Below, one piece after another: positions 3,476 to 54,540 of a stretch of DNA of 64,000 nt (positions are counted from its first letter, which is position 1; every line of letters starts with the position of its first letter). The notes beneath the pieces were generated by a model that saw only the letters and a program-made list of their open reading frames with translations, did not search any database and was not told where the DNA came from. This DNA comes from Amycolatopsis alba DSM 44262 (GTDB lineage Bacteria; Actinomycetota; Actinomycetes; Mycobacteriales; Pseudonocardiaceae). Position numbers and translations under genes: made by a program. Location of the stretch: contig NZ_KB913032.1 in the NCBI RefSeq assembly GCF_000384215.1, positions 8,331,605 through 8,395,604 of the forward strand, given 5' to 3'.

Positions 3476-3727
3476 TCATCGCACCGGTTTCTCTTCCTGC
3501 GCCAGGTCCGCTTCGATCAGTGCGATGGCCTCGGCGAGCCTGCTGCCGAGAACCAGCTCGCCGGGATCGACACCGTACTTCTCACTGATGACCACGGAAA
3601 ACACGGCGAGCGCGAGTGAATCGAGGCCGATCTCCGCAAAGGTCGCTTCGGGTGTGACCAGCTCCGGCGGGATTCCGAACTGATCCGAGAGCTGACCGGT
3701 GATCAACTGAAAAACCGGAGTAACCAC
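3476..3727 (-). CDS. acyl carrier protein
   Basis: A discrete carrier protein of 83 residues, the usual ACP length. The phosphopantetheine attachment site is in the GLDSLA motif, with Ser37 as the modified residue. The start is a GTG at 3727, preceded by a clear GGGAGG ribosome-binding site six bases upstream. It is the last gene of the leftward operon that begins with the alpha-oxoamine synthase and lies 42 bp after the aminotransferase. This suggests that the operon's acyl intermediate is carried as a thioester on this protein, either before condensation by the oxoamine synthase or while it is acted on by the ketosynthase encoded at 21.1-22.3 kb (inference). No dedicated phosphopantetheinyl transferase is seen in the window. 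Confidence 0.9.
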   Translation of the reverse strand: MVTPVFQLITGQLSDQFGIPPELVTPEATFAEIGLDSLALAVFSVVISEKYGVDPGELVLGSRLAEAIALIEADLAQEEKPVR

Positions 3728-3769
3728 GTTGTCCTCCCTTTCCGACGGAGATCGACATGCGGCTCCTGG

Positions 3770-5038
3770 CTAAATCGGCAGGCGCAGGGCCGGTCCGGTG
3801 GACCCGGTCGCCACCGTGCGGGCGGCGCTGTCCAAGCGCTCGATCACCGCTCCGGCTTGAGCCGGGGTGATGATCAGCGGCGGCATGACGAGCAGCGTGC
3901 TCGGCGCGTTGTGCGCGACCGTGGCCAGGACGCCATGGTCGATCGCCGCACGCATCAGCGCGAGCCCCCCGTGCTCGTCACGGGTCTCCAGCGCCAGCAT
4001 GAGCCCGAGCCCGCGCACCTCCGCGAGCACCGACGGATGGCGACCGACCACCTCCGCCAGCCCGGTGCGCAGGACGGCGGCGGTCGCGCGAACCTGGTCG
4101 AGCAGCCCTGGCCTGCTGACCTGTTCGACCACCGCACAGACGACGGCCGCGGCCAGTTCCCCGCCGCCGAAGCTGGACGGATGGAAGAACGGATCGTCCG
4201 CGAGCGACCGCTGGATCTCCTCGGTGAAGCTGCACGCCGCCACCGGATAGACGCCGCCGGACAGACCTTTGCCGGTCACCAGCAGGTCCGGTCGCACGTC
4301 CCAGTGTTCGGCGGCCCAGATCCGGCCGGTCCGCCCGAGGCCGGACTGGACCTCGTCGAGCAGCAACAGCGCGCCGGACTCGTCGCAGCGCCGCCGTACC
4401 TCGGCGAGGTAGCCATCCGGCGGCAGCACCACGCCCGCCGAGGCCGGGATCGTTTCGAGGCAGACCAGCGCGGTGTCCTCCCCCACCGCCGCACGCAAGG
4501 CATCGATGTCACCGAAGGGAACCCGGACCACGTCTTGTTCCCGTGCCGAAGGCCCTGGGCCTTCGCTCATCGCCAGCGCGAGACCGACCTGGCCGTGATA
4601 GGCGCGCTCGGCGCAGACCACTCCGCGACGGCCGGTGGCCAGCCGGGCCAGCTTGCCCGCGAACTCGATCGCCTCGCTGCCACTGGCGGTGAAGAAGCTG
4701 TACGGCAGGGTTTCCGGCAGCAGGCAGGCGAGGGCGGCCGCGGCCCGGCCACGCGGCAGGGACGGCAGCATCCAGTCACCGATGTCACGGGACTCCAGCG
4801 CGTCGCGCAACGCCGCGGTGATCGACGGCGGGCGATGACCGAAGTCGAAGACACCGCCGGCGCTGCGGCAGTCCAGCAGGACACGGCCGTCGTAGGTATG
4901 GATTTCCGCACCCGCGCCGCCCGCCTGAGCGGGTACCCCACCCATGGCCCGGTACGCGGCGGCGCGATGCGGTGAGAGATTCCGTTCCAGCAAGGTGAAA
5001 GTCTCGGCGGTGTGGTCCGCCCCCGAATAACCGGTCAT
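3770..5038 (-). CDS. class III PLP aminotransferase
   Basis: A 422-residue fold-type I class III (omega) aminotransferase. Visible features are ASGSEA around residues 118-123 (PLP phosphate binding), LLDEVQSG with Asp228 for the pyridine nitrogen, and TGKGLSGG with Lys257 as the Schiff-base lysine. Length is normal for the family. The ATG start at 5038 overlaps the stop of the PEP-synthase-like gene in an ATGA, so the two are translationally coupled. Class III members in natural-product clusters typically aminate aldehydes or ketones with Glu, Ala or ornithine as donor; PigE in prodigiosin biosynthesis is one example. Here the likely substrate is an aldehyde or ketone made by the same operon (inference). 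I cannot tell from sequence whether it acts before or after the oxoamine synthase. Confidence 0.88.
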   Translation of the reverse strand: MTGYSGADHTAETFTLLERNLSPHRAAAYRAMGGVPAQAGGAGAEIHTYDGRVLLDCRSAGGVFDFGHRPPSITAALRDALESRDIGDWMLPSLPRGRAAAALACLLPETLPYSFFTASGSEAIEFAGKLARLATGRRGVVCAERAYHGQVGLALAMSEGPGPSAREQDVVRVPFGDIDALRAAVGEDTALVCLETIPASAGVVLPPDGYLAEVRRRCDESGALLLLDEVQSGLGRTGRIWAAEHWDVRPDLLVTGKGLSGGVYPVAACSFTEEIQRSLADDPFFHPSSFGGGELAAAVVCAVVEQVSRPGLLDQVRATAAVLRTGLAEVVGRHPSVLAEVRGLGLMLALETRDEHGGLALMRAAIDHGVLATVAHNAPSTLLVMPPLIITPAQAGAVIERLDSAARTVATGSTGPALRLPI

Positions 5039-7308
5039 GACAGCACGGTCACCGTTCCCTCCGTTCCGTCCACCCGCACGAGTTGCCCGTCGCGCAGTCG
5101 CTCGAGGACGCCTCCCACCGCGATGACCGCCGGCAGCGAACGCTCGCGGGCCAGGATCGAGCCGTGGGACAGCAGGCCGCCCTGTTCGGTGACGAGACCG
5201 CTCGCCGCCAGGTAGGCGGGAGCCCAGCCAGGGTTGACGCTCTGGACGACGAGAATGCCGCCTGCCTCGAAGTCGCCGATCTCGGCGACGCTGCGCAGGA
5301 TCCGGACCGGCCCCTCGGCCACCCCGGCCGAGCAGGCGATGCCGGTCAACGTGCGCCCCCGCACCGGAGACGGCCGCACGGGCATCGCGCCCAGCGCGGA
5401 CGGCGGCTCCCAGTTGCGGAAGCAGCGCGCGTGCTCGCGCCGCATCCGGACGCGCGCCTTGAAGTCACCGCCCTCGAGATCGTCGTCGAGGGCACGCAGG
5501 ACCTCGTCGAGGGTCAGCCAGAAGACGTCGTCCGGCGCGTCGAGCAGGTCCAGTTCCGCCCAGCGGCCGCCCAGTCCCAGGCAGGCCCGGCGCAGGATCC
5601 GGTTCGCCCGTGTCGCCGAGACGCGGAGCACCTCGCGGGTACGGCTGTACTCGCGGGCGGCGCCGAGCACTCCCCGCAGAACCGGGGTCCACGGCCCGGC
5701 GGCACGCAACACCCGGCGTTCCTCCTCGGCACGGGACCGGGCGTGCTCCGGCGGGACCGCCCTGGGACCCGCCTGCGCCGCCCGCACCGCGGCCTTCAAC
5801 AGCAAAAGGACGGTTCCCGGATCCTCGTCCCATCGGGGACGGGCGAGCTCGTCGTCGCCGTCCGCCAGGTAGCCGAACTCCTGCGACAACGCCGCCAGTC
5901 CGGTGCCGAGGCCGTCGGGCAGCGCCTCGGTCTCGGCCGCCGCCAGCACCTCCTCGGCCATGTCGGCCGCCTGACCGGCCAGCTCCTCCAGCGCCCGGCC
6001 CGCCGCGCCGGTGGCCAGCGGCCCCAGGCCGTCCATCAAGAGCAGTTCACGGGGCGGCTCGTCCAGCCGGCCGCCGACCTGCTCCAGCAACGCGCGCAAC
6101 AGCTCCTGCAACTGCTCGGCCATGAACGAAACTCTCAGCGACTGCCGGTAGGTCCGCTCGTGCAGCCGCAGCGCGCCGTGGAACTCGGTGCGCAGTTCCG
6201 GGTCCGCCAGATCCGCCCAGGCGACGGCGAGCCAGCGCCGATCGCGGCCTGCGTCCCCGGCCTGGTACGCCATGGCCTCGCGCAGGATCCGCCGGTGCTG
6301 CCGCCACACGGCGAGAACGATCTTCGGCACCCGCCGGATAGTGGCGGGTGCGGGAGACCACCGCTCGCCCTGCCCGTGGTAGCCGGGGACCAGGCCGAGC
6401 CCCTCGTCGAACGACCGCTCGATGTAACCGGGGAGCTGCAGCAGGGTCTTCTTGAACTCGTCGACCCGCCAGTAGGCGTGCCCGTAGCACCGCCGTCCCT
6501 CGACCACCGGGCGGCCGGGCACCTCGAGCCCGATGTCCCGCAGGAATTCCGTGAGGGCTTGCGGAAACACCCGGCCGAGGGTGATCGACGCGCTGAGCGG
6601 GGTGACCAGGCCGGGCATGGTCTCCCGGAAGTTCGCCGAGGTCCATTGTCCTGGCAGGGGCTGCCAGCGGGCGGCGGTGACCGGCCGGGCCTGGAGCAGC
6701 CACAGCCGTTCGTCGTCGAAGGCCCACTCGAGGTCGCACGGGTAGCCCAGCCAGCCTGCGACCGCGCGCACCAGCTCGATCACCGCGGTGGCCTCGTCCT
6801 GGCCGAGCCCGGACCCCGCCAGGGAGCCGCGCAAGCGACCGGTCAGCAGGGAAGCGCGCAGGGTGGCCGGGGTGACCTCGCCGTCGGTCAGCGCGTTCCC
6901 GCGTCCCGGCACGGACTCGATGACACAGGTGCTGTCGTCCCCGGTGAGCGGATCGAGGGAGAAGGCGACCCCGGCGGTCTTCGCGGCGACCAGTGCCTGC
7001 ACGATCAGCGGTATCCGCCCTAGCTCGTCCACCACGGCGGCCAGCCCGGTCGTGCGGACGTCGAGCCGGGTGTCGTAACGACCGGCCTGCGACTCGTCCG
7101 AGCCGTCCTCGTCAGGGGCGGAAGAGCGCACCGCGAACGGGCCGGGGCCGAGAAGGCGTTCCAGTTCCACGGAATCCGGCGGTTCGCCGGGCAGCAGGAC
7201 CACCCCGGCAGGCACCGAAAAGCCTTGCCGGATGGCGAGGCCGAGCATCCTGGCCTTGCCGCCCACCTCCGCCGCCGTCAAGTCCGCCGCCTTCGACAAC
7301 TCGATCAT
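5035..7308 (-). CDS. PEP-synthase/RedH-like ATP-dependent protein
   Basis: A 757-residue protein with the two-ended build of pyruvate-phosphate dikinases. The N-terminal ATP-grasp part spans about residues 1-212: GGKA near 16-19, VRSSAPDEDG at 60-69, and WLLQARPV near 203-210. This is about 100 residues shorter than the usual ATP-binding domain. A long helical central region carries no standard signature. The C-terminal swivelling domain has EQGGLLSHGSILARE, in which His715 is the expected phospho-carrier. The same architecture occurs in PEP synthase, rifampin phosphotransferase and the prodiginine condensing enzymes RedH/PigC. The ATG at 7308 overlaps the previous stop (ATGA). Its place between the oxoamine synthase and an aminotransferase favours an ATP-driven biosynthetic step over drug inactivation (inference); resistance by phosphorylation remains an alternative. 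Confidence 0.75.
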   Translation of the reverse strand: MIELSKAADLTAAEVGGKARMLGLAIRQGFSVPAGVVLLPGEPPDSVELERLLGPGPFAVRSSAPDEDGSDESQAGRYDTRLDVRTTGLAAVVDELGRIPLIVQALVAAKTAGVAFSLDPLTGDDSTCVIESVPGRGNALTDGEVTPATLRASLLTGRLRGSLAGSGLGQDEATAVIELVRAVAGWLGYPCDLEWAFDDERLWLLQARPVTAARWQPLPGQWTSANFRETMPGLVTPLSASITLGRVFPQALTEFLRDIGLEVPGRPVVEGRRCYGHAYWRVDEFKKTLLQLPGYIERSFDEGLGLVPGYHGQGERWSPAPATIRRVPKIVLAVWRQHRRILREAMAYQAGDAGRDRRWLAVAWADLADPELRTEFHGALRLHERTYRQSLRVSFMAEQLQELLRALLEQVGGRLDEPPRELLLMDGLGPLATGAAGRALEELAGQAADMAEEVLAAAETEALPDGLGTGLAALSQEFGYLADGDDELARPRWDEDPGTVLLLLKAAVRAAQAGPRAVPPEHARSRAEEERRVLRAAGPWTPVLRGVLGAAREYSRTREVLRVSATRANRILRRACLGLGGRWAELDLLDAPDDVFWLTLDEVLRALDDDLEGGDFKARVRMRREHARCFRNWEPPSALGAMPVRPSPVRGRTLTGIACSAGVAEGPVRILRSVAEIGDFEAGGILVVQSVNPGWAPAYLAASGLVTEQGGLLSHGSILARERSLPAVIAVGGVLERLRDGQLVRVDGTEGTVTVLS

Positions 7309-8996
7309 GACTGGACCTCCTCCCGCGCGTGCGCCTGCCGTCCGGCGGACGCGCGCACGACCCGCAGCACCGCGTCCCGGACCGGCGTCAAACCGCCGGG
7401 CGCCAGGGCCACGCTGGGACCGGCCACCGGGATCACTCCGGCCACCGGCGGCAATACGGCGCCTGCCGCCTGGTCCTTCGCGGTCCGCGCGATCGCCCGG
7501 CGGACGACGAGAGGATCGGCGTTCCCGTGAAGGCACCCGAGCACATGCGGGGGCGGCGGCTGTCCGGTCACCGCGAGCAGCCCGCCTGATCGACGTCGCC
7601 GGGCCACCGGTTCGGGCCGGACGAGATAGGGCGGCATCGACGACCGGGTACTCGCGTACCGGATCGCCGCCGCCAGCGCCGAGGCGACGGCCTCGCGGTC
7701 CGCGCGGCCACGCCGCCCGGTGCTGAGCCCGTGCCCCGGCAGATCGACGAGCACCACCTCGACGCCGTGCCGGGCGAGCGACATCGCGAGCGGAGTGCAC
7801 CACCGCGCGTGCAGCCCCGGCCCGGCGGACACGACCACGGTGCCGAGGCGAACCCCCTCGGCTGGATGCACCTCCAGGTGGACCGAACCTGACGGCACCG
7901 GCCGCTGCACGTGTTCGAGACGGCCGAGAGCCTTTTCGAGACCACCTGACTCTTCGACCAGGGCTCGTATCCCGCCGACGGTTTCCACCCATCCGGCAAG
8001 GATTTCCGTCGCGGGTTCGAGTGCGCGCTCGCAAGCGGCTTTACCGGACAAGGCATACCGGGCGGGCAGTACCGGACGCCCCTTGTGCAGCACCATGATC
8101 GCGGCTGCTTCGGACGAGGTGAGTGCGGGCGCCCAGCCCGTGGCCGCCCGGAACCTGCTGCCGTCGACGCAGGTGTCCCCTGGCACCACCCACTGCCCGG
8201 ACGCCGGGAACAGGCCGAGCCGGAACAGCACGTCGGCGATCCGCCTTGCCGGTTTCTCCGGCACGCCCGCCAGCAGCTGGCCATGCATACGGGCCAGGTC
8301 CCGCGCGCTGATCCAGTCCTGCGTGCCGAGGTTGTACGGGCCGACGAGGGAAAGCTTGGCCGCCCGGTGGAAGGCGTCCGCGAGATCGCGTTGGTGCAGG
8401 AACTGATAGCCCGCCCGGCCGGCCTCCGGAAGCATCAGGACGGGTGCGGTCAGCGCGTCGATGCCGTCGTTGCCGAAGCTCGGGCCGATGACGTACGGCG
8501 AGCGGAGCAGGGCGATCGCCATCTCGCCGGGATGCCTGCGCAGCCACCATTCCGCGTAGTGCTCGACCTCGGCCTTGTCGTAGAAGTAATAGTGATCCGG
8601 GCTGCCGCTGGGAAAGACGTCCTCGTCGACGAGCTTGGGCAGGTCCCCCACGCCGTAGGCGTTGACGCTGGAGGCGACCACGAGGCGTTCGACCCCCGCG
8701 CGGGCGGCCGAATCGATCACATTGCGCGAGCCGCGCAGGTTGATGTCGTGGATCTCGGCCTTGTCCCGGATCTCCTCCACCACGAAGGCAAGGTGCAGAA
8801 CGGCCTCACAGCCGTCGAAAACCCCGGCCAGTTCGGGTGATCGCACGTCCAGCCGGCGCGACCGGAGCTTCGGATGGCACAGCCGCGGCGGCCGCCGCCC
8901 CAGCCCGATCACCTCGTCGATCTCGGGATCGGCGCACAGGGCGGGCAGGATCGCCGCGCCGAAGTCGCTGGTCGCTCCGGTGACGGCAACTTTCAT
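7305..8996 (-). CDS. NAD-dependent epimerase fused to degenerate hydrolase-like domain
   Basis: A 563-residue protein in two parts. Residues 1 to about 300 form an extended-SDR/epimerase fold: a TGATSDFG nucleotide loop at the N-terminus (a variant of GxxGxxG), an SSVNAYG strand, and a YxxxK pair within YFYDKAE. From about residue 360 the sequence has alpha/beta-hydrolase strands (VVVSAGPGLHARW and VVLVDLPGHGLS), but I find no GxSxG nucleophile elbow after them. The second half therefore may not be a working hydrolase. The gene is coupled to both neighbours by four-base ATGA overlaps. Likely role: NAD(P)H-dependent reduction or isomerisation of the operon's acyl or amino-ketone intermediate (inference). 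The two-domain arrangement is unusual, and I do not know a characterised protein with it. Confidence 0.6.
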   Translation of the reverse strand: MKVAVTGATSDFGAAILPALCADPEIDEVIGLGRRPPRLCHPKLRSRRLDVRSPELAGVFDGCEAVLHLAFVVEEIRDKAEIHDINLRGSRNVIDSAARAGVERLVVASSVNAYGVGDLPKLVDEDVFPSGSPDHYYFYDKAEVEHYAEWWLRRHPGEMAIALLRSPYVIGPSFGNDGIDALTAPVLMLPEAGRAGYQFLHQRDLADAFHRAAKLSLVGPYNLGTQDWISARDLARMHGQLLAGVPEKPARRIADVLFRLGLFPASGQWVVPGDTCVDGSRFRAATGWAPALTSSEAAAIMVLHKGRPVLPARYALSGKAACERALEPATEILAGWVETVGGIRALVEESGGLEKALGRLEHVQRPVPSGSVHLEVHPAEGVRLGTVVVSAGPGLHARWCTPLAMSLARHGVEVVLVDLPGHGLSTGRRGRADREAVASALAAAIRYASTRSSMPPYLVRPEPVARRRRSGGLLAVTGQPPPPHVLGCLHGNADPLVVRRAIARTAKDQAAGAVLPPVAGVIPVAGPSVALAPGGLTPVRDAVLRVVRASAGRQAHAREEVQS

Positions 8997-10228
8997 CGAG
9001 GCAGTTCCGCGGCGACGTCGGCGAACGTCTTCACGGCGCGATCGATCTGCTCACGGGTGTGCGTCGCCATCACGCACAACCGCAGCAACGCCTCGGACCG
9101 GGCGACCGCGGGGAACATCGCGGCGCTGGCGAACAGCCCGCTGTCGAACAACCGGCGCCACAGGGTCGCCGCACGAAGATCGTCGCCGACCAGGACCGGC
9201 ACGATCGGGGACACGATCTCCTCGCCGCTCGGGAGCCGCGACGGCTCGCCGACGTCGAAACCGGCGTCCCGCAGCCCTTCCCAGAGCTGGCGGGCGTTGG
9301 CGAGCGTGCGCTCGGCGATCGCCCGGCCCTCTTCGCTGCGCTGCAGGCGGACGGCCGCGAGAGCGGCGCCCAGCGAGGACGGGACGGCGGCGGTGGTGAA
9401 CAGGAAGGACCGAGCTCCGGCCCGCAGCGCGTCGATGACGTCACGGGAGCCCGCGACGAACCCGCCGGTGGAGCCGAGTCCCTTGGACAGCGCCCCCATC
9501 TGGACATCGACGTCCGCGTTGACCCCGAACAACTCGGCGGCGCCGGTGCGCCGCTCGCCGAGCACGCCCGCGCTGTGCGCCTCGTCGACCAGCAATGCCG
9601 CGCCGTATTCGCGGCACAGCGCGGCGATGCCGTCGAGCGGAGCGAGATCCCCCTTCATCGAGTACAGGCCGTCGACCGCGACGAGTACGCCGCCGCCGTC
9701 ACCGGCGGCCCGCTTCAGGGTGTCCTCGAGCTTGTCCAGCCGGTTGTGCCGGAACATGCGGATCTTCGCCCTGGACAACCGGCAGCCGTCCAGGATCGAC
9801 GCGTGTGCCGAGGCATCCACCACCACCGTGTCGCCGGGGCCGACCAGCGCGCCGATCGCGCCCAGATTGGCCTGATAGCCGGTGGTGAACACGATCGCGG
9901 CCTCGGTCCGGTACCAGTCCGCGATCTCCGCTTCGAGCGCGAGATGGAGATCGATCGTGCCGTTGAGCAGCCTGCTGCCGGTGATCGTGGTGCCGTAGCG
10001 GTCCAGCGCGTCGCGTGCGCCCTGGATGACCGCGGGATGCTCGGCGAGGCCGAGGTAATTGGCCGAACCGAGCATCAGCGCCTCGTGGCCTTCGATGTGC
10101 ACGACCGGCGCGGTGGTGGATTCGACGACGCGGAAATAGGGCGCGTGATTCTCGGATTCGAGCGCGCGCAAACGGCCGACCGACTCGTCCTCACCAATGC
10201 GATCGATGACATGATTCGACCTGCTCAC
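8993..10228 (-). CDS. alpha-oxoamine synthase (AONS/KBL/SPT family)
   Basis: A PLP-dependent condensing enzyme of about 411 residues that joins an acyl thioester to an amino acid with loss of CO2, giving an alpha-amino ketone (established for the family). Seen here, numbered from the upstream ATG at 10234: GSANYLG near 56-62, TITGSRLLNG near 83-92, LVDEAH with Asp217, and ALSKGLGSTGG with Lys251 as the PLP lysine. A GTG at 10228 has the ribosome-binding site GGGAG at seven bases and is preferred; the ATG at 10234 is almost in contact with that site. First gene of the five-gene leftward operon, with 155 bp of non-coding DNA upstream. The acyl donor could be the cyclohexyl-type CoA of module C or an ACP thioester; the amino-acid partner is unknown. 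Confidence 0.9.
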   Translation of the reverse strand: MSRSNHVIDRIGEDESVGRLRALESENHAPYFRVVESTTAPVVHIEGHEALMLGSANYLGLAEHPAVIQGARDALDRYGTTITGSRLLNGTIDLHLALEAEIADWYRTEAAIVFTTGYQANLGAIGALVGPGDTVVVDASAHASILDGCRLSRAKIRMFRHNRLDKLEDTLKRAAGDGGGVLVAVDGLYSMKGDLAPLDGIAALCREYGAALLVDEAHSAGVLGERRTGAAELFGVNADVDVQMGALSKGLGSTGGFVAGSRDVIDALRAGARSFLFTTAAVPSSLGAALAAVRLQRSEEGRAIAERTLANARQLWEGLRDAGFDVGEPSRLPSGEEIVSPIVPVLVGDDLRAATLWRRLFDSGLFASAAMFPAVARSEALLRLCVMATHTREQIDRAVKTFADVAAELPR

Positions 10229-10383
10229 AATCATTCTCCCTGAAATCGGGCATGCGATCGGAAATGCCGTCCAACTCGGACAATATGATTTCTCGAGCGG
10301 GCGTTGTTTCGAAGACTAGCATCGCCGCATCGGCGAACTCTTGCATGGCACTGACAAATCACTTACAACCGGCCGATAAGGGA

Positions 10384-11658
10384 TCAGGAAATGCGGTGCA
10401 GGGCGGTTCGCTTCTCCAGTTCGGGGACGAGATCGCGCGGGCTCGGCGTGGCCAGCATCTCCCGCCGGATCTCCTCGGCCTGGTCCCGGAACGACGGCTC
10501 CCGCAGCAGCCTGGACAGTCGGCTCTTGAGCTCTTGCGTGGACAGCGAATCGACCGCCAGAGCCAGGCCGGCTCCGCGTTCCTCCAGCTTGCGCGCCATG
10601 TCCACCTCGTCCCACACCAGGCTGGGGATGACGAGCTGCGGCACGCCGTGCACCACGGCGTTGTTCAGTGTTCCCGCGCCGCCGTGGTGGATGATCGCCG
10701 AGCAGGTGGGCAGGAGTTCGTCGAGCGGGACGAAATCGACGACCCGGACGTTGTCCGGCACATCGGGCAGCGGCCCGAGCTGGTCTTCGTTGAGCGTGGC
10801 GATGACCTCGATGTCCAGATCGGACACCGAGCGCAGCAGGTCGGCGGCCGAGACCCCGTCTCCGCCGATCACTTCCCGTCCCGAGGTGCCGAGGGTCAGG
10901 CAGACACGGGGACGCTCCGGCGGGCGGCGCAGCCAGTCCGGCAGGCCGGACTTGCCGTTGTACGGCACGTACCGCACCGGCAGATAGTCGAGGTCGAGCG
11001 GGAGCCGCATCCAGGCGGGCACCGGGTCGACCGTCCACTGGCCGACGAGCAGTTCCTCGCTGAACTCGCAGTCGTAGCGGGAAAGCTTGCCGGACAGCCA
11101 TTCGGCCACCGGATCCTCGCGGTGCTCCGGCGGCTGCCGGTCCAGGAGGTCGAGGAAGACGCCCCGCATGCGCGAGATGTAGTCCAGCCCGAACGACATC
11201 CGGGCGTGCGCGGCGCCGCTGGCACGGGCCGCCACCGGGCCGGTGAACGACAGCCCGTCCCAGATCACCAGGTCCGGCTTCCACGCACGGGCGAACCGCA
11301 CGAGATCGTCCGACACGGAGAGATTCCCGAGGTATTCGTACTGCAGGCAGGAAATGGTGAACTCCCCGAGCACGTGTTCCCAGGTCAGCCGTTCCGGCCG
11401 GGCCTCGGTCATCCCCTGACTCAGGCTCTGGAACTGCCCGCTGCTGAACTTCGCGCCGCCGGAGCCCTGCAGAGCGGGGCCCAGATTGAGCTCGTCGCCG
11501 ACGGGTACCGCGGTCAGGCCTGCGCCGGTGATCTCGGCAGCCAGATCGGGCTGACTGGCGACGCGGACCTCGTGCCCCGCCGCCCGCAACGCCGACGCCA
11601 GCGGGACCAGATTGTACAGATGCGCCCTTACCGCGAGCACCGTGAACAGGACCCGCAC
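10384..11658 (-). CDS. GT-B glycosyltransferase, EryCIII/DesVII type
   Basis: A 424-residue GT1-family glycosyltransferase transferring an NDP-deoxysugar to the aglycone (family role). The N-terminus (LFTVLAVRAHLYNLVPLASA, then AAGHEVRVA) is typical of macrolide-type enzymes such as EryCIII. The C-terminal donor-binding region has HHGGAGTLNN at 324-333, followed by HGVPQLVIP. EryCIII/DesVII-type enzymes need a P450-like partner protein for activity, and such a protein is encoded at 14450-15757. It is a single gene, divergent from the 2,3-dehydratase. The expected donor is the amino sugar made by the neighbouring enzymes. As the only glycosyltransferase in the window, it predicts one type of sugar attachment. 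Confidence 0.9.
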   Translation of the reverse strand: MRVLFTVLAVRAHLYNLVPLASALRAAGHEVRVASQPDLAAEITGAGLTAVPVGDELNLGPALQGSGGAKFSSGQFQSLSQGMTEARPERLTWEHVLGEFTISCLQYEYLGNLSVSDDLVRFARAWKPDLVIWDGLSFTGPVAARASGAAHARMSFGLDYISRMRGVFLDLLDRQPPEHREDPVAEWLSGKLSRYDCEFSEELLVGQWTVDPVPAWMRLPLDLDYLPVRYVPYNGKSGLPDWLRRPPERPRVCLTLGTSGREVIGGDGVSAADLLRSVSDLDIEVIATLNEDQLGPLPDVPDNVRVVDFVPLDELLPTCSAIIHHGGAGTLNNAVVHGVPQLVIPSLVWDEVDMARKLEERGAGLALAVDSLSTQELKSRLSRLLREPSFRDQAEEIRREMLATPSPRDLVPELEKRTALHRIS

Positions 11659-11825: not shown

Positions 11826-13292
11826 ATGGTGGATATTTCCGCGCTCGCCAAGAAGTCCTCTGCCGGATCCGGCGGATCTCGTCCATGGCAACTCGCCGAA
11901 TCCGTGCTCAGCGGCACACGGGACGTCCATCGGCTCGCGGATTTCCATCGGTGGTTCGCCGACCTGGGGCAGCGGTTCTACACCGAGGTGGACCGGATCC
12001 CGCTACCCGGACTGTCCGGCTGGCGTCTGGATCCCGGCACCGGAAACCTGGGGCATGACAACGGCCGCTTCTTCACCGTCGAGGGACTGGAGGTCCGGGT
12101 GCCCGGCGGCCCGGTCGAGCGGTGGAGCCAGCCGATCATCAACCAGCCGGAGATCGGCATTCTCGGCATCCTGGTGAAACGGTTCGGCGGCGTCCTGCAC
12201 TTCCTGATGCAGGCGAAGGTCGAACCGGGCAACCACAACGGATTGCAGCTCTCGCCGACCGTGCAGGCAACGCGCAGCAACTACACCCGTGCACACCACG
12301 GGAAACCGGTGCCCTATCTGGACTATTTCCTCAGGTCCGCCCGGCACGGCGTGCTCACCGACGTGCGGCAGTCCGAGCAGGGTTCCTGGTTCTACCGGAA
12401 GCGCAACCGCAACGTGGTCCTCGAAGTCACCGAAGAAGTCGAGGTCCTCGACGGCTTCTGCTGGCTGACCCTGGGGCAGCTGCACAGCCTGCTCACCGCC
12501 GGGGACCTGGTGAACATGGACTCCCGGACGGTGCTGTCCTGCCTGCCGTTCTCCGGCGCGGGCCTGCTCGAGGCGTTCGCCCCGGCCGGTGACGACTTCC
12601 GCGCTTCGGTCATCCGGTCCTGCAGCGAGGACGAGGGCAGCCGTCATTCCACAGTGGACATCCTGAGCTGGATCACCGAGGTCCGCACCCATTCCGAAGT
12701 GCACACCCGGCTCGTGCCGCTCGCCGGGCTGGCGGGGTGGCGCCGGACCGACGACGCGATCACGCACGAGAACGGCCGGTTCTTCGAGGTGATCGGGGTG
12801 CGGGTGCGGGCGGGAGGGCGCGAGGTCGGCGAGTGGACGCAGCCGATGATCCGGGCGTACCGGACGGGTGTGGTGGCGTTCCTGGTCAAACGCGTCGACG
12901 GAGTGCTCCACGCGCTGGTGCACGCGCGGCTCGAACCCGGCTACCTCGACGTCGCCGAACTGGCCCCGACCGTGCAGTGCGTCCCGGAGAACTACGACCA
13001 TCTGCCGACGGCCGCCCGGCCGCGTTTCCTGGACGAGGTACTGACCGCGCCGGAGGACCGGATCCGTTTCGACGCCACGCTTTCCGAGGAGGGCGGGCGG
13101 TTCTACCACGCGCGCAACCGTTACCTCGTGGTCGAAACGGACGAGGACCGGGAACTCGACCATCCCGATTTCCGCTGGCTGCCCCTGCACCAGCTGGTCC
13201 ATCTGCTCCGGCACAGTCACTATGTCAACATCCAGGCGAGGAGCCTGGTGGCCTGCCTGCACAGCCTCACCGCCCCGCCCCCGGCGAGCTGA
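11826..13292 (+). CDS. NDP-hexose 2,3-dehydratase
   Basis: A 488-residue member of the NDP-hexose 2,3-dehydratase family (TylX3/EvaA type). It removes the C2 hydroxyl of the NDP-4-keto-6-deoxyglucose intermediate, the committed step to 2,6-dideoxysugars. The family's internal duplication is plain. The first half has LDPGTGNLGHDNGRFFTVEG with ILVKRFGGVLHFLMQAKVEP, and the second half repeats this as HENGRFFEVIG with FLVKRVDGVLHALVHARLEP. Each half also ends in a similar WLTLGQL or WLPLHQL phrase. ATG at 11826 is preceded by AGGAG at a good distance. It is divergent from the glycosyltransferase with 167 bp between them, and convergent with the aminotransferase. Confidence 0.95.
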   Translation: MVDISALAKKSSAGSGGSRPWQLAESVLSGTRDVHRLADFHRWFADLGQRFYTEVDRIPLPGLSGWRLDPGTGNLGHDNGRFFTVEGLEVRVPGGPVERWSQPIINQPEIGILGILVKRFGGVLHFLMQAKVEPGNHNGLQLSPTVQATRSNYTRAHHGKPVPYLDYFLRSARHGVLTDVRQSEQGSWFYRKRNRNVVLEVTEEVEVLDGFCWLTLGQLHSLLTAGDLVNMDSRTVLSCLPFSGAGLLEAFAPAGDDFRASVIRSCSEDEGSRHSTVDILSWITEVRTHSEVHTRLVPLAGLAGWRRTDDAITHENGRFFEVIGVRVRAGGREVGEWTQPMIRAYRTGVVAFLVKRVDGVLHALVHARLEPGYLDVAELAPTVQCVPENYDHLPTAARPRFLDEVLTAPEDRIRFDATLSEEGGRFYHARNRYLVVETDEDRELDHPDFRWLPLHQLVHLLRHSHYVNIQARSLVACLHSLTAPPPAS

Positions 13293-13326: not shown

Positions 13327-14436
13327 TCAGCAGGTGGCCAGCACTTCGCGCAGGGCGCCGATCACCTTGTCCTGCACGCTCGGCGCGAGCGCCGGGTACA
13401 TCGGCAGCGAGAAGATCTCCCCGGCCAGCGCCTCGGTGACCGGCAGGGCGCCGTTCCGGTAGCCGAGGTGGGCGAATCCGGTCATGGTGTGCACCGGCCA
13501 CGGGTAGCTTATGTTGAGCGCGATCCCGTGGGCCTTGAGGGCCTCGATGATCGCGTCACGCCGGGGATGGCGGACCACGTACAGGTAGTACACGTGATCG
13601 TTGCCCTCCGCGGTGGCGGGCAGGACGAGTTCGGTGTCACCGAGTCCCTCGGCGTACCTGCGCGCGACCGCGCGCCGGTCGGCGACGTACCGGTCCAGCC
13701 GGGTCAGCTTGCGGCGCAGGATCTCGGCCTGTACCTCATCGAGCCTGCTGTTGTGTCCCGGCGTCTCCACCACGTAGTAGCGCTCGGCCATGCCGTAGTA
13801 CCGGAGCCGTCGAAGGTTGCGCTCGACCTCGTCGAGACCGGTGACGGTGGCGCCCCCGTCGCCGTACGCGCCGAGCACCTTGGTCGGATAGAAGGAGAAC
13901 GCGGCCGCGTCGCCCATGGAGCCCACCAGCGCGCCGTGATGCCGCGCGCCGTGCGCCTGTGCGCAGTCCTCGAGGATCGCCAGCCCGTGCGCGGCGGCGA
14001 GTTCCCGCAGCGGGGCCATTTCCACGCTCTGGCCGTACAGGTGGACCGGCAGCAGGCACCGGGTCCGGCCGGTGATGGCGGCCGCCACCTGGCCGGTGTC
14101 CATCAGGTAGTCGCCGGGCCGCACGTCGACGAAGACCGGTTTGGCGCCCACCGCGTCGATGGCCACCACGGTCGGCGCCGCGGTGTTCGCGACCGTGATC
14201 ACCTCGTCACCGGGGCCGACGCCCAGCGCCTGCAGCCCCAGCTTGATCGCGTTGGTGCCGTTGTCGACGCCCACGCAGTGCGGCACACCGTGATAGGCGG
14301 CGAACTCCGTCTCGAACCCCCGGACACTTTCGCCGAGCACCAGGCGTCCCGATCTGAACACGGTCTCGACCGCGTCGAGGATGTCGTCCCGTTCCCGCTC
14401 GTATTCCGGCAAGTAGTCCCACACGAAGGTGGTCAT
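13327..14436 (-). CDS. DegT/DnrJ/EryC1 sugar 3-aminotransferase
   Basis: A 369-residue PLP aminotransferase of the DegT/DnrJ/EryC1 family, which puts an amino group on keto-deoxysugars. Seen: DNGTNAI near 58-64, [10 protein letters not shown] with Asp157, and [14 protein letters not shown] with Lys186 as the PLP lysine. ATG 14436 is chosen because AGAGGTG stands just upstream and the protein then begins like family members ([14 protein letters not shown]). In a vancosamine-type pathway this is the C-3 aminotransferase that follows the 2,3-dehydratase (EvaB role). It lies 13 bp after the P450-like helper gene and is probably cotranscribed with it. Confidence 0.92.
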
Positions 14437-14449
14437 GGCACCTCTCATC

Positions 14450-15757
14450 TCAGCTCTGGCCGACGGCCACGGGGCATCGCGCGACACCTCGCACGACGGG
14501 GGATCTCCTGCGACGGATCACCGGGCCGGTCCGGCGCAGCCGGGGGAACCGGGCGGCGAGGGTCCGCAGGGCCACCACGGCCTGCAGGCGGGCCTGCGGT
14601 GCGACGAAGGTGGTGTGCAGGCCGCCGGTCAGCGTGAGGTGACCGGCCACGTCCGGCCGCGTGATCAGGAAGTCGTCCGGATCGGCGAAGGCCTCCGGAT
14701 CGCGGTTGGCCGCCTCGACGAGGACGACCACCTGCTCGGACTTCCGGATCACCTGACCGGCCAGTTCGAGGTCCTCGAGCGCGATCCGGCTTTCCAGCCG
14801 GACCGGCGAGTGGTAGCGCAGGGTCTCCTCCACCGCGCCGACGGCCAGTTCCGGGCTTTCGCACAGTGACGTCCACTGCTCCGGGTGATCGAGCAGGGCC
14901 AGCACCGCGTCGCAGACCAGGTTCGCGCTCACTTCGACGCCCACCACCGCGGTCAGCACGGCCGCCGCCAGCACATCCTCGTACGGTGGCCCCTCGGCAC
15001 CGCGCAGCAGTTCACTCAGCGCGTCGTCGCCCGCGCTCCCCGACCGGCGCTCGATCAGCCCGGAGAACAGCTCCTGGATCCCCTCGATCGACGTCACGAG
15101 CGCACGGGTGGTGGCCAGCGTCGGCGGGCACAGCAGGGCGTCGAGGGCGGTGGCCGCGTCCGGGCACAGCAGGCCGAGCCGTGCGTGCTCTTCGGCGGTC
15201 AGCCCGAAGAGCGCCGCGGTCGCGGCGACCGCGGCCGGACGGGCGAAACCGGTCATCAGATCGAACTCGCCGCCCAGGCGGCCGGCGATCGCGGCGGTCT
15301 CCCCCGCCACGGCGTCGCGATGACGATCCACCGCGGCCACGCCGAGGGCCGGTCGGGCGAACTCGTGCAGCCGGTCGTGATCGGCATGGCTCAGTCCGAG
15401 AAACGCCCCGTCGAGGGTCAGGACGTGTTGCGGGGGCACCCGCGAGCCCAGCGCGTAGAGCGTCCGATCGTCCGGCCCGGTGTCCGGATGCGACAGTCCG
15501 AGGCGCCGGTCGCCGAGAATCGCGCGGGCCACCGAGTGACTCACGGTCGCCCAGGCGCCGAGCTGACTTTGCCGCAACGACGGCCCGGCCCGCAGTTCCC
15601 CGTACAGCCGGTGAAGATCGGGATCCTGGTCCCGGAGAATCAGCGCGTAGGGATCCCCGTGCACGCCATGTGCCCACTGAATCCCGCGAACGGTCAGCAG
15701 ATGCTGGGACAGCTCGCTGTCCGGATACGAGCTCGGATCGATCTGATGCACCGGCAT
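14450..15757 (-). CDS. P450-like glycosyltransferase activator (EryCII/DesVIII type), no heme Cys
   Basis: A 435-residue protein with a P450 fold but altered heme pocket. The ExxR pair is present (ETLR at 311-314). The cysteine-ligand loop, normally FGxGxHxCxG, reads [14 protein letters not shown], so the position of the axial cysteine is Thr383. This loss is characteristic of the helper proteins that activate EryCIII/DesVII-type glycosyltransferases (established for EryCII and DesVIII), and exactly such a glycosyltransferase is encoded at 10384-11658. ATG 15757 follows a GGGG site. The gene leads a two-gene operon with the aminotransferase and is divergent from the C-methyltransferase, with a StrR-type operator between them. 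A monooxygenase function is unlikely. Confidence 0.88.
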
Positions 15758-15799
15758 GGCCCCATCGAAGCCGGGGCGGGCATTCGCGTCCAGTCCGCT

Positions 15800-15828
15800 G
15801 GTCGAGTGTGGAATTTCCCCAGTCGACC
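15800..15828. promoter_or_regulatory. StrR-type operator, 9-11-9 inverted repeat
   Basis: GGTCGAGTG, eleven bases, then CAGTCGACC. The halves are inverted copies with one mismatch (8 of 9). This matches the published StrR consensus as I recall it (GTTCGACTG-N11-CAGTCGAAC) in spacing and in most positions. It lies in the 124-bp divergent promoter region of the helper/aminotransferase operon and the C-methyltransferase, so a StrR-like activator could control both. The same half-site occurs as a perfect repeat at 43948-43976. Confidence 0.75.
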
Positions 15829-15881
15829 ACCGGAATCGGGAAACTTGGGCCGCACCGAGTGCGGAAGGTACGTTGACCGCC

Positions 15882-17099
15882 ATGCCGAATTGCCGTGTCT
15901 GCGGGGAAAACCTGCGCGAATTCCTCGACTTCGGAAGCCAGCCCCTGTCGGACGCCTTCCGGAGGCCCGCCGATCCGGGCGACGAGTTCTTCTTCCGGCT
16001 GGCCGTCGGCAGCTGCACCTCGTGCTCGATGGTGCAGCTGATGGAGGAAGTGCCACGAGACCGCATGTTCCACCACGACTACCCGTACCATTCCTCCGGC
16101 TCCTCCGTGATGCGCAAGCATTTCGAGCGCACCGCACGGGATTTCCTGGAGACCGAGCTGGCCGCGCCGGACTCGTTCGCGGTCGAACTGGGCTGCAACG
16201 ACGGGATCATGCTCCGCACGATCGGCGACGCCGGACGCCGTCACCTCGGCGTCGAGCCTTCCGGAGGCGTGGCCGAGATCGCCAGGGCGAACGGGGTCCG
16301 GGTCCGGACCGACTTCTTCGAACACTCGGTGGCCGTGGACATCCACCGCGAGGACGGCCCGGCGAACGTCATCTACGCGGCGAACACGATGTGCCACATC
16401 CCGTACGCCGAATCGATCTTCGAAGGGGTTGCCGCGCTGCTCGCGGAGGACGGCGTGTTCGTGTTCGAGGATCCCTATCTCGGCGACATCGTCAAGCAGA
16501 CCTCGTTCGACCAGATCTACGACGAGCACTTCTATTTCTTCAGCGTGCGCTCCGTCCAGGCTTTGGCGCGGCGCTTCGGCTTCGAACTGGTCGACGTCGA
16601 ACGCCTTCCGGTGCACGGCGGCGAGGTGCGGTACACCATCGCACGGGCCGGGCGGCGGGAACCGGCCCCGTCGGTCGCCGAACTGGCGGACGAGGAACTG
16701 ACGCTCGGCCTGCACGAACCGGCGACCTTGGACGCCTTCGCCGTCCGGGTCCGCGAAATCCGCGACGAACTGGTGGCCCTGCTGGAAGGGCTCCGCGCGC
16801 AGGGCCGGACGGTCGTCGGTTACGGGGCGACGGCCAAGAGCGCGACCGTGCTGAACTACTGCGGGATCGGACCGGGGCTCGTTTCGTCCATTGTGGACAC
16901 CACCCCGGCCAAACAGGGCCGGGTGACGCCCGGATCGCATATCCCGGTCCGGCCTGCCGACACCTTCGGCGAGCCGTACCCGGACGTCGCCCTACTCTTC
17001 GCCTGGAATCACGCGGACGAGATCATGGCCAAGGAACAGGCTTTCCGCGCCGCCGGCGGGAAATGGATCCTTTACGTGCCGAAGCCCCGGCTGGTGTGA
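15882..17099 (+). CDS. NDP-deoxysugar C-3 methyltransferase
   Basis: A 405-residue SAM-dependent sugar C-methyltransferase of the TylC3/EvaC type, which methylates C-3 of an NDP-3-amino-4-keto-2,3,6-trideoxyhexose. The N-terminal zinc-binding part shows CRVCG at residues 4-8 and CTSC near 45-48. The SAM-binding motif VELGCNDGIML follows near residues 104-114, and the C-terminal half has the typical GYGATAKSATVLNY stretch. Start ATG 15882 gives the zinc motif at the very N-terminus, as in homologues. A methyl branch on the amino carbon distinguishes vancosamine/epivancosamine-like sugars. Its last 108 bp overlap the 3' end of the opposing 4-ketoreductase gene. Confidence 0.93.
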   Translation: MPNCRVCGENLREFLDFGSQPLSDAFRRPADPGDEFFFRLAVGSCTSCSMVQLMEEVPRDRMFHHDYPYHSSGSSVMRKHFERTARDFLETELAAPDSFAVELGCNDGIMLRTIGDAGRRHLGVEPSGGVAEIARANGVRVRTDFFEHSVAVDIHREDGPANVIYAANTMCHIPYAESIFEGVAALLAEDGVFVFEDPYLGDIVKQTSFDQIYDEHFYFFSVRSVQALARRFGFELVDVERLPVHGGEVRYTIARAGRREPAPSVAELADEELTLGLHEPATLDAFAVRVREIRDELVALLEGLRAQGRTVVGYGATAKSATVLNYCGIGPGLVSSIVDTTPAKQGRVTPGSHIPVRPADTFGEPYPDVALLFAWNHADEIMAKEQAFRAAGGKWILYVPKPRLV

Positions 17100-18062
17100 A
17101 CCAGTGCCACCCGGCGCCGGCTCGGCGGCCAGGGCCGCGACCGTATGCGCCAGCCCGTCCCGCAAGGAGATCCGTGGCGACCAGCCGGTCACCGAGGTGA
17201 ACGGCGAGGTGTCGACCACCACGCTCCGGAGATCGGCCGCGGTGGCCCACCCCGGCGGCGGCACCGACAGCACCGGCACCGCCGGACGGCCGGTCCGCTC
17301 GGCCACCAGACCGGCGATGCCCCGGAAGATCCCGTCGACGCGACGGCCCCGGCCGGAGCCGACCGCCCAGTGCCGTCCGGCCAGCGCGTCGGCATGGTCC
17401 AGCGCGGCGGCGAAGGCCCGCGCCGCGTCGTCGACGTGCAGCGGATCCCGTTCGACCGACCCGTCGTGCCACATGGTGAGGGGCGTGCCGGCGAGTGCGC
17501 GCCGCACCATCGCCGACAGCACTCCCCCGCCCCCGCCCGAGGCCGCGGTATGCCCGAAGACCATGGGCAGCCGCAGGGTGATGCCGCGCGCCACCCCTTG
17601 GGCGGTGGCCTCGGCCAAGATCCGCTCCGCGGCCAGTTTCTGCCGATCGTAGACATTGTCCGGGGCCACCCCGCCGGACTCCGGCTGGGAGGTCGAACCG
17701 GCGAACAGCACGATCGGTGCCTGCCGGGACCGCGGCGCCGACCCCAGTACCCGGACGAGATCGCGGACCAGGCCGACGTTGACCCGCTCGCCGTCCGCTT
17801 CCCCGGCCGCCCGCCAGGTCTTGCCGCCGGTGTAGAGGACGAGGTGCACGATGACCTCGGCGTCCGCGACCGCCGCGGCCAGCCCGGCCGGGTCGGTGAG
17901 GTCGGCGGCGCACACCTCGATCCGGGCCCGCCCGCCCACGCGGACCGGATCCGGCCGCCGGGTCACCACCCGCAGCCGGATCGGCCGGTCCGCCAGCCGC
18001 GCGGTGACCGCCGAGCCGATGTACCCGGAGGCACCGAGCACCACCACCAGAGGCCTTGTCAC
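16992..18062 (-). CDS. NDP-hexose 4-ketoreductase (extended SDR)
   Basis: A 356-residue extended short-chain dehydrogenase with VVVLGASGYIGSAVTARL at the N-terminus (GxxGxxG) and YDRQK as the YxxxK catalytic pair. It is similar in type to EvaE/TylD-like reductases that set the C-4 hydroxyl as the last step of deoxysugar assembly. GTG 18062 overlaps the stop of the 3,5-epimerase (GTGA), so the two genes are coupled. The C-terminal 35 or so residues run antisense into the C-methyltransferase gene, which suggests a lengthened C-terminus. C-4 stereochemistry, and so vancosamine versus 4-epi-vancosamine, cannot be read from sequence. Confidence 0.88.
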   Translation of the reverse strand: MTRPLVVVLGASGYIGSAVTARLADRPIRLRVVTRRPDPVRVGGRARIEVCAADLTDPAGLAAAVADAEVIVHLVLYTGGKTWRAAGEADGERVNVGLVRDLVRVLGSAPRSRQAPIVLFAGSTSQPESGGVAPDNVYDRQKLAAERILAEATAQGVARGITLRLPMVFGHTAASGGGGGVLSAMVRRALAGTPLTMWHDGSVERDPLHVDDAARAFAAALDHADALAGRHWAVGSGRGRRVDGIFRGIAGLVAERTGRPAVPVLSVPPPGWATAADLRSVVVDTSPFTSVTGWSPRISLRDGLAHTVAALAAEPAPGGTGSHQPGLRHVKDPFPAGGAESLFLGHDLVRVIPGEE

Positions 18063-18661
18063 CGGCTGAACCCGTTCTCCGCCCGGACACATTCACGATA
18101 TTCGGGAAGCAGTCCCTTTTCCCTGGCCTCGGCGAGCGTGGGGGCGGCCAGATCACGGGCGGATCGAATGGGGTCCACCCAGTCCGGAATGTCCAGCCCG
18201 AGTTCCGGATCGAACACGGAAATCGCCAGCTCGTTTTCCGCGACATAGCTCGCGGACATCAGATAGGACATCGTCGTGTCCTCCTCCAAGGCGACGAAAG
18301 CGTGCCCGACGCCCACCGGGAAATAGACACTCCGGAGACTCTCCGCGTCCAGGACGACCGCTTCCCAGCGGCCGAACGTCGGCGAGCCGACCCTGATGTC
18401 CACCACGTAGTCCAGCGCCCTGCCCCGCGGGCAGTGGACGTACCTGGCACAGCCGGGCGGGGTCGTGGTGAAGTGCACGCCACGGACGACACCCCGCTTC
18501 GACCGGCTGCAACTGGCTTGCGCCAACGGAAAGGGCGGAAACCCGACCGCGGCGACGAAGGACGGCTCCTGTAGCGGGGAGACGAAGACGCCGCGGTCGT
18601 CGGCGAAGACCTGCGGGGTGAACTCGACGGCACCCTCGACGGCCAGCTTGCGGGACTGCAT
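18059..18661 (-). CDS. NDP-4-keto-hexose 5-epimerase (RmlC-like)
   Basis: A 200-residue cupin of the dTDP-4-dehydrorhamnose 3,5-epimerase family, the normal length. His63 (in RGVHFT) and Tyr133 match the general base and acid positions known from RmlC. Such enzymes in C-3-branched sugar pathways act as 5-epimerases (EvaD role) and give the L-configuration. ATG 18661 is preceded by GGGAGAGG; the longer frame up to 18727 lacks support. First gene of the two-gene operon with the 4-ketoreductase, divergent from the acyl-CoA-dehydrogenase-like gene with 178 bp between. Confidence 0.93.
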   Translation of the reverse strand: MQSRKLAVEGAVEFTPQVFADDRGVFVSPLQEPSFVAAVGFPPFPLAQASCSRSKRGVVRGVHFTTTPPGCARYVHCPRGRALDYVVDIRVGSPTFGRWEAVVLDAESLRSVYFPVGVGHAFVALEEDTTMSYLMSASYVAENELAISVFDPELGLDIPDWVDPIRSARDLAAPTLAEAREKGLLPEYRECVRAENGFSR

Positions 18662-33247: not shown

Positions 33248-33264
33248 GCCAAGGGAGGCACCGA

Positions 33265-54533: not shown

Positions 54534-54540
54534 GCATGCT

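What the first reader, a model, noticed from the sequence alone, without database searches (positions are those of the whole stretch)
3476..10228. Operon of oxoamine synthase, epimerase/hydrolase-like fusion, RedH-like protein, aminotransferase and ACP
Five tightly coupled genes combine functions known separately from prodiginine-type (oxoamine synthase, PEP-synthase-like condensing enzyme) and other pathways. The RedH-like protein has a short ATP-grasp domain and His715. I know of no described system with this exact set. It may assemble an amino-ketone and then close or couple a ring in an ATP-dependent step.
Basis: partly seen in the sequence, partly recalled or inferred. Interest (0 to 1): 0.8.

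Follow-up and report, generated by a model that had tools for sequence, protein, structure and literature searches.

The report
Conserved amine-building cassette in glycoside cluster
Five neighbouring bacterial genes, plus two more a few kilobases away, belong to a rarely seen, apparently undescribed enzyme set that probably turns an activated acid and an amino acid into an unusual nitrogen building block for a sugar-bearing natural product.

Summary
The operon is real: five minus-strand genes (10234-3476), three of the four junctions being 4-base overlaps. The 'hydrolase' half of the fusion is a remnant without nucleophile elbow or catalytic His. The 757-residue protein is a small-molecule dikinase of the rifampin-phosphotransferase fold, far from both RedH and Rph by curated scores. 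The operon is also only part of the unit. A reduced set (synthase, reductase, N-hydroxylase) occurs in five more genomes. In the window the block lies near genes for a cyclohexane-type acyl-CoA and a glycosylated amino sugar. Ten searches of an open-access library listed no paper on this set. Best reading: a cassette making an N-oxygenated amine from an acyl thioester plus an amino acid. Reactions and product are inferred, not shown.

The parts
8993..10234 (-). alpha-oxoamine synthase, serine-palmitoyltransferase-like (AOS, P0005)
   Evidence: SPT models 376 bits, below the cut-off of 500; aligns over residues 23-407 with an SPT structure, 293 bits; HASI144, DEAHS217, PLP Lys in SKGLGS250 and the LRLCVMATHT384 stretch kept (roles recalled)
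7305..8996 (-). extended SDR reductase/epimerase (EPI, P0004) with a C-terminal alpha/beta-hydrolase remnant
   Evidence: Epimerase 2.5e-21; S109/S110, Y137, K141 invariant in 14 aligned; nucleophile elbow GSSLGG and GHL His present in 4 of 14 and absent here
5035..7308 (-). small-molecule dikinase of the Rph/PEP-synthase superfamily (P0003): ATP-grasp about 1-212, helical domain about 235-650, phosphohistidine domain 653-757 with His715
3770..5038 (-). class III PLP aminotransferase (AT3, P0002)
   Evidence: Aminotran_3 4.5e-68; best solved relatives putrescine aminotransferase, then 4ppm (named 'Aminotransferase' there; PigE by recall); GKGL and DEVQSG kept
3476..3727 (-). stand-alone acyl carrier protein (P0001), GLDSL phosphopantetheine site
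   Evidence: PP-binding 1.6e-8; sequence
18840..20003 (+). group D flavin monooxygenase-like protein, proposed amine N-hydroxylase; orthologues sit beside AOS/EPI elsewhere
   Evidence: model pLDDT 90.7; fold matches KijD3, TdsC, DszC, DnmZ, with dehydrogenases close behind
20040..21038 (+). Rossmann-type NAD(P) reductase (KR) of unclear class, next to the N-hydroxylase-like gene here and in two relatives
10384..11658 (-). activator-dependent glycosyltransferase (EryCIII type)
   Evidence: TIGR04516 568 bits, above the cut-off of 440
14450..16066 (-). P450-derived glycosyltransferase activator (start uncertain)
   Evidence: TIGR04515 488 bits, above the cut-off of 343
11826..13292 (+). NDP-hexose 2,3-dehydratase
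   Evidence: PF03559 9e-164
13327..14487 (-). DegT/DnrJ sugar aminotransferase
   Evidence: PF01041 1.5e-107
15756..17099 (+). sugar C-methyltransferase (start uncertain)
   Evidence: PF08484 9e-56
16992..18092 (-). NAD-dependent epimerase-family protein, probably sugar
   Evidence: PF01370 1.6e-39
22327..23595 (-). class II DAHP synthase
   Evidence: 408 bits, below the equivalog cut-off of 615
23592..26006 (-). old-yellow-enzyme / dienoyl-CoA-reductase-type protein
   Evidence: PF00724 1.9e-61
25667..26494 (-). SDR reductase
   Evidence: PF13561 1.3e-61
26491..27654 (-). acyl-CoA dehydrogenase
   Evidence: PF00441 4.7e-41
27626..31240 (-). EPSP-synthase / acyl-CoA-ligase fusion (start uncertain)
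   Evidence: PF00275 1.5e-81 and PF00501 1.9e-72; cyclohexanecarboxylate-CoA ligase model 451 bits, below the cut-off of 792
30939..34512 (+). glutamate-dehydrogenase-like, DUF3419 (BtaA-like) and P450 genes; cluster membership likely but unproven

Best explanation
The operon is most of a conserved biosynthetic cassette (AOS, EPI reductase, flavin N-hydroxylase-like, KR reductase, dikinase, class III aminotransferase) that makes an N-oxygenated amine building block, here inside a cluster for a glycoside. Proposed order: (1) shikimate-derived genes supply a cyclohexane- or cyclohexene-carbonyl-CoA; (2) the acyl group, perhaps carried on the ACP, is condensed by the AOS with an amino acid (serine-like recognition) to an alpha-amino ketone; (3) EPI reduces the ketone to an amino alcohol; (4) P0003 phosphorylates a hydroxyl via His715, with ATP giving AMP and phosphate; (5) the co-encoded PLP enzyme acts on the phosphorylated or derived carbonyl compound by amine transfer or phosphate elimination; (6) the flavin enzyme hydroxylates the amine and KR adjusts the oxidation state; (7) the aglycone receives a 3-amino, 3-C-methyl deoxysugar. 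Shown: gene content, domain and catalytic-motif integrity, the hydrolase remnant, recurrence of the block. Inferred: every substrate, the order of steps and the product.
For: Recurrence of the whole block in one run of genes in G980 and G1527: AOS 54-56%, N-hydroxylase-like 48-51%, KR 48-51%, PEP 38-40%, AT3 47-49%, EPI 46-47% identity. AOS+EPI+N-hydroxylase-like together in 5 more genomes. Fourteen contig lengths, this genome's included, are shared by the listed EPI and N-hydroxylase-like homologues. ATP-grasp and phosphohistidine motifs intact and Rph-type three-domain fold. AOS aligns with SPT. Two of 120 listed N-hydroxylase-like homologues carry the source name isobutylamine N-hydroxylase; the top VIA fold matches are monooxygenases, sugar N-oxygenases among them. 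Cyclohexane-type acyl-CoA genes and sugar genes lie in the same window region.
Confidence: 0.55

Rival explanations
1. P0003 is a self-resistance phosphotransferase (Rph-like) that phosphorylates the finished compound, and the remaining operon genes make the aglycone without it.
Against: It overlaps AT3 and EPI by 4 bases here and keeps AT3, KR, AOS and EPI as neighbours in G980 and G1527, whose other genes differ from the window's; the Rph model scores 173 bits against a cut-off of 999 and the middle domain 23 bits.
Confidence: 0.15
2. Prodiginine-like logic: AOS amino ketone, PigE-like aminotransferase, RedH/PigC-like ATP-dependent coupling of two halves into a ring system.
For: AT3 has 4ppm (PigE by recall) among its nearest solved relatives and a PigE model hit of 232 bits; the ATP-grasp part alone scores best against PigC (84 bits), and the dikinases of G980 and G1527 score 175-178 bits against PigC/RedH.
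Against: All scores are far below the PigC/RedH/PigE cut-offs; AT3 residues 38-356 align only to positions 404-731 of the 837-position PigE model; no ketosynthase or NRPS module was found among the window ORFs scanned; the generic PEP-synthase-like model scores higher for all three copies.
Confidence: 0.12
3. The flavin enzyme at 18840 is a sugar nitrososynthase (KijD3/DnmZ type) of the amino-sugar pathway, so the true operon unit is the five genes alone and the nitrogen oxidation is on the sugar.
Against: Only about 20% identity to KijD3, with TdsC and DszC tied; orthologues at 48-63% identity sit beside AOS and EPI in seven genomes where, of the window's sugar genes, only weak epimerase-family matches were found in the stretches read.
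Confidence: 0.2

Closest known systems
Rifampin phosphotransferase (Rph) and the two-component kinases HpeHI, CreHI, PpsAB
   Same: ATP-grasp, helical substrate domain and swivelling phosphohistidine domain; T/SxxGGxxxH motif
   Different: 18-21% identity over the fold; far below the Rph model cut-off; shorter ATP-grasp domain; lies inside a biosynthetic operon
Prodiginine ligases RedH/PigC and aminotransferase PigE
   Same: same superfamilies and an oxoamine synthase in the same pathway (prodiginine AOS recalled, not tested)
   Different: 163/143 bits against cut-offs of 1350/1300; PigE 232 against 850; no bipyrrole assembly genes recognised in the ORFs scanned
Bacterial serine palmitoyltransferase / sphingoid base synthesis (AOS + ACP + ketoreductase; recalled)
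   Same: AOS is SPT-like with its catalytic residues; SDR reductase and ACP in one operon
   Different: 376 bits against the SPT cut-off of 500; dikinase, aminotransferase and N-hydroxylase have no counterpart there (recalled)
Valanimycin-type azoxy pathways (VlmH, VlmA, VlmO, VlmB)
   Same: flavin N-hydroxylase-like protein; relatives G980 and G1527 add a membrane-type protein with VlmO residue spacing, an MprF-like transferase and a DAO-type FAD oxidase
   Different: the window has no tblastn match to the VlmO-like or MprF-like protein; AOS, dikinase and AT3 are not among the five genes that PMC9379638 (part 1 of 3 read) names as shared by azoxy clusters
Cyclohexanecarboxyl-CoA supply of ansatrienin, asukamycin and phoslactomycin (recalled)
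   Same: EPSP-synthase-like, acyl-CoA ligase, acyl-CoA dehydrogenase, SDR and OYE genes
   Different: fused EPSPS-ligase; no polyketide synthase found in the ORFs scanned; an oxoamine synthase may use the unit instead (inference)

Membership tests
RedH/PigC ligase | score above the curated equivalog cut-off (1350/1300 bits) | tested here: not met
   163 and 143 bits
RedH/PigC ligase | couples a bipyrrole aldehyde to a pyrrole | not testable with these tools
   needs an assay
Rifampin phosphotransferase | score above the curated cut-off (999 bits) | tested here: not met
   172.9 bits; middle domain alone 23.4
Rifampin phosphotransferase | three-domain fold with swivel His | tested here: met
Small-molecule dikinase superfamily | T/SxxGGxxxH with a non-Thr residue at the regulatory position; ATP-grasp residues kept | tested here: met
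   TEQGGLLSH; R61, E194, Q206, R208 invariant in A1, their catalytic role recalled
Small-molecule dikinase superfamily | ATP to AMP plus phosphate, phosphorylated small molecule | not testable with these tools
   needs an assay
Alpha-oxoamine synthase | fold-type I core with PLP Lys, DEAH and His stacking residues (roles recalled) | tested here: met
Serine palmitoyltransferase | above the curated SPT cut-off (500 bits) | tested here: not met
   376 bits, yet its best model and best solved relatives are SPT
PigE aminotransferase | above the cut-off of 850 bits, full 837-position architecture | tested here: not met
   232 bits, positions 404-731 only
Alpha/beta hydrolase (C-terminus of P0004) | nucleophile elbow GxSxG and catalytic His | tested here: not met
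   absent in P0004; present in 4 of 14 aligned sequences
Group D flavin monooxygenase / amine N-hydroxylase (18840-20003) | acyl-CoA-dehydrogenase-type fold | tested here: met
Group D flavin monooxygenase / amine N-hydroxylase (18840-20003) | monooxygenase rather than dehydrogenase active site | tested here: inconclusive
   dehydrogenase YEGT-type motif (recalled) not seen, FHPP at 363-366 instead; Z gap under 2
Valanimycin-type azoxy cluster (window) | VlmO-like hydrazine synthase and VlmA-like transferase | tested here: not met
   no tblastn match to the relatives' copies in the window; own-genome search for the VlmO-like protein empty, without a positive control
Valanimycin-type azoxy cluster (relatives G980, G1527) | VlmO spacing D-x30-H-x27-H-x3-D in a membrane-type protein | tested here: met
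   13 hits of the pattern in 3.49 million six-frame codons of fetched DNA, these two included; no known VlmO sequence was at hand for comparison
Valanimycin-type azoxy cluster (relatives G980, G1527) | VlmB-like diiron oxygenase | tested here: inconclusive
   no reference sequence; the ORF between the VlmO-like and AttH-like genes is a DAO-type FAD oxidoreductase instead
Cyclohexanecarboxyl-CoA pathway | ligase above the cyclohexanecarboxylate-CoA ligase cut-off | tested here: not met
   451 of 792 bits, still its best NCBIfam match

The most novel reading that the evidence does not exclude
The dikinase and the class III PLP enzyme, adjacent in all three full copies, form a new way to remake a carbon-nitrogen bond: P0003 phosphorylates the hydroxyl of an AOS-derived amino alcohol (or an N-OH group) and the PLP enzyme, with KR, eliminates phosphate and re-aminates, giving amines for N-hydroxylation and, in the two other full copies, for N-N (azoxy) bond formation. 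The window copy would attach this chemistry to a cyclohexane unit and a branched amino sugar.
Probability: 0.2. Interest if true: 0.8.

Novelty: new variant of a known kind. Interest (0 to 1): 0.6.

Why it matters
It defines a compact, recurring gene set that joins an oxoamine synthase, a small-molecule dikinase and an amine N-hydroxylase-like enzyme, each known from other pathways but not found together in print by the searches made. It gives a genomic handle for finding new N-oxygenated amines, possibly azoxy compounds in Rhodococcus-type bacteria. It would also offer a biosynthetic role for an enzyme fold best known for antibiotic inactivation, and an unusual use of a cyclohexane acyl-CoA without a polyketide synthase.

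Tried and rejected
Orthologues of P0003 in viral contigs: none confirmed. In plasmids: 311 records matched, none over 80% of the query, 28-34% identity in the 15 rows listed. P0004 in plasmids: 38 records, in the 25 rows listed only the first domain. A genome-collection scan with A1 used two very general peptide patterns and returned the best 80 of 394 loci, all distant (25-36% identity). Among these and the family hits L007-L025, only scattered homologues of AOS (1 locus) and AT3 (6 loci) and none of EPI, KR or the N-hydroxylase passed 1e-15, so the scan neither finds nor excludes closer ones.

Frameshift as the cause of the odd hydrolase end of P0004: codon-position GC mostly keeps the same frame to 7305, with a dip of the third position at about 8100-7830, and the same shortened form recurs in the five fusions of L113-L117, so an error of this sequence is unlikely.

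The best 15 relatives of P0003 (43-47% identity) come from metagenome-type sources and their neighbours could not be read; none shares a contig length with the listed EPI or N-hydroxylase homologues.

Saccharopine-dehydrogenase class for KR: only weak hints (E 0.27 for the G980 copy; 0.098, where another oxidoreductase ranks first at 0.0022), so not claimed.

Literature: ten searches, of which 25, 68, 96 and 105 asked for combinations of the set and the others for its parts; in their listings no paper describes the set. The library lacks most subscription journals.
Full report
Setting. The window is G000:C1:8331605-8395604 of a 9.8-Mb single-contig genome. Kinship tables and source names of homologues point to an actinobacterium of the order that holds Rhodococcus, but of another family, probably Pseudonocardiaceae (inference). 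The five genes of the finding form a minus-strand operon, 10234 down to 3476, with three 4-base overlaps and one 42-base gap.

What surrounds it. Pfam scans of the window's main ORFs (NCBIfam) show two further modules. One is an amino-deoxysugar set: 2,3-dehydratase, DegT aminotransferase, C-methyltransferase, epimerase, an EryCIII-type glycosyltransferase and its P450-derived activator, the last two above their curated cut-offs. The other looks like supply of a shikimate-derived cyclic acyl-CoA: class II DAHP synthase, EPSP-synthase/acyl-CoA-ligase fusion, acyl-CoA dehydrogenase, SDR and OYE-type reductase. The ligase part matches cyclohexanecarboxylate-CoA ligase best, at 451 of 792 bits. 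No ketosynthase or NRPS module was found among the ORFs scanned; some ORFs at 44.5-48 kb and 57.5-64 kb and most short ones were not scanned. From about 34.6 kb onward genes become less specific: the FAD-binding dehydrogenase there passes a general equivalog (945 against 476 bits).

The fusion protein. P0004 has an intact extended-SDR core (S109/S110, Y137 and K141 invariant in 14 sequences). Its tail aligns with the first part of an alpha/beta hydrolase but lacks the nucleophile elbow and the catalytic His, which 4 of the 14 aligned sequences keep. The shortened tail is shared by the five fusions of L113-L117, and the G980 copy lacks the domain. The codon-position pattern, apart from one dip, argues against a frameshift. 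So it is a reductase or epimerase with a remnant, not a hydrolase.

The synthase and the aminotransferase. P0005 aligns over residues 23-407 with a serine palmitoyltransferase (293 bits) and keeps the PLP lysine, the stacking His, DEAHS and the C-terminal Arg stretch (roles recalled). It scores 376 bits against an SPT cut-off of 500, so it is SPT-like, not a proven SPT. P0002 is closest to putrescine aminotransferase and then to structure 4ppm, which I recall as PigE.

The conserved unit. P0004 relatives at E <= 1e-80 occur in 7 of 397 genomes of the order sample, this one included. All six others were fetched. In 5 of the 6, AOS (58-62%), EPI (53-61%) and a homologue of the window gene 18840-20003 (53-63%) lie together in the 20 kb read, without dikinase or AT3. 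In the sixth, G980, the extended stretch shows on one strand AOS, N-hydroxylase-like, KR, PEP-like, AT3, a 182-residue membrane-type protein, a DAO-type FAD oxidoreductase, an AttH/tocopherol-cyclase-like protein, an MprF-type transferase and EPI. A search with KR found 3 of 381 genomes of that family: G980; G1527, with the same gene order and identities of 46-56% to the window (dikinase 40%); and G1482, with KR only (36%) plus homologues of the window's TrpB2 and aldehyde dehydrogenase in the 14.2 kb read up to the contig end. P0003 itself has no other match at E <= 1e-60 among 394 genomes of the class sample, and among 18 genomes of G980's genus only G980 matches. In its own family 95 of 390 genomes, this one included, match at 1e-30, but the best other hit is 164 bits against 1667 for itself. 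In the phylum sample 8 of 396 genomes hold an EPI relative at 1e-50: this one, G507 (L115) and six from other classes at 35-41% identity. For these six, the 20 kb read for one and 3.5-4 kb for each of five showed no other cassette gene. Fourteen contig lengths, this genome's included, are shared between the 120 listed EPI homologues and the 120 listed N-hydroxylase homologues; about 0.05 coincidences would be expected above 5 kb under a rough log-uniform model. Equal length suggests the same contig, and several are whole chromosomes.

Azoxy link in the relatives. The 182-residue protein of G980 and its G1527 counterpart show D-x30-H-x27-H-x3-D, the spacing of the essential VlmO residues D51, H82, H110 and D114 (PMC11705231, passages). 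This pattern occurs 13 times in 3.49 million six-frame codons of fetched DNA, these two included. With an MprF-type transferase (83 bits to MprF, cut-off 600) and a DAO-type FAD oxidoreductase in the same run, these two clusters look like azoxy pathways in which the oxidase might take the part of VlmB (inference). The window has no tblastn match to the VlmO-like or MprF-like protein, so its product need not contain an N-N bond.

Mechanism. Supported by sequence: an AOS able to make an amino ketone, an SDR reductase, an ATP-dependent phosphohistidine kinase, a PLP aminotransferase and a flavin N-oxygenase candidate. Inferred: that the acyl donor is the cyclohexane-type CoA, that the kinase acts on the amino alcohol, that AT3 acts next, and that the amine is N-hydroxylated and the product glycosylated. 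The pairs PEP-AT3 and N-hydroxylase-KR stay adjacent in all three full copies, which suggests that each pair works on consecutive steps.

Novelty. Each enzyme family is known; the combination was not seen in the listings of ten literature searches of an open-access library (listed under Tried and rejected). It is filed as a new variant of a known kind.

Noticed in passing
L118:11013-14966, L138:17441-19900 with L139:1-1829: VlmO-like membrane-type protein with the four-residue spacing of the hydrazine-forming enzyme, a DAO-type FAD oxidase, an AttH-like protein and an MprF-type transferase in a row: probable undescribed azoxy-type clusters in two genomes of the Rhodococcus family.
   Followed up: partly
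window 37287-40198 and L140:725-3687: Aldehyde dehydrogenase and TrpB2-type genes of the window have 54% and 63% identical neighbours in G1482 beside an amine oxidase, an MMPL transporter and a KR-like gene; they may belong to the same chemistry.
   Followed up: partly
window 32063-33247: DUF3419 (BtaA-like, 3-amino-3-carboxypropyl transferase type; role recalled) beside a glutamate-dehydrogenase-like gene and a P450: possible homoserine-type decoration of the product.
   Followed up: no
window 50557-55100: Two overlapping minus-strand ORFs of 756 and 758 residues, both with a GmrSD N-terminal domain (PF03235): possibly a DNA-modification-dependent defence locus.
   Followed up: no
window 60818-61891: ORF with a phage-type five-bladed beta-propeller domain (PF21311, 1.4e-16) in an otherwise chromosomal stretch.
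   Followed up: no
P0154, P0161, P0170, P0176: Relatives of P0004 from metagenome-type records keep a complete hydrolase motif set (GSSLGG and GHL), showing that the shorter fusions have lost this active site.
   Followed up: yes
window 41243-43339: Large SARP/BTAD-type regulator at the right side of the cluster, a likely pathway activator.
   Followed up: no
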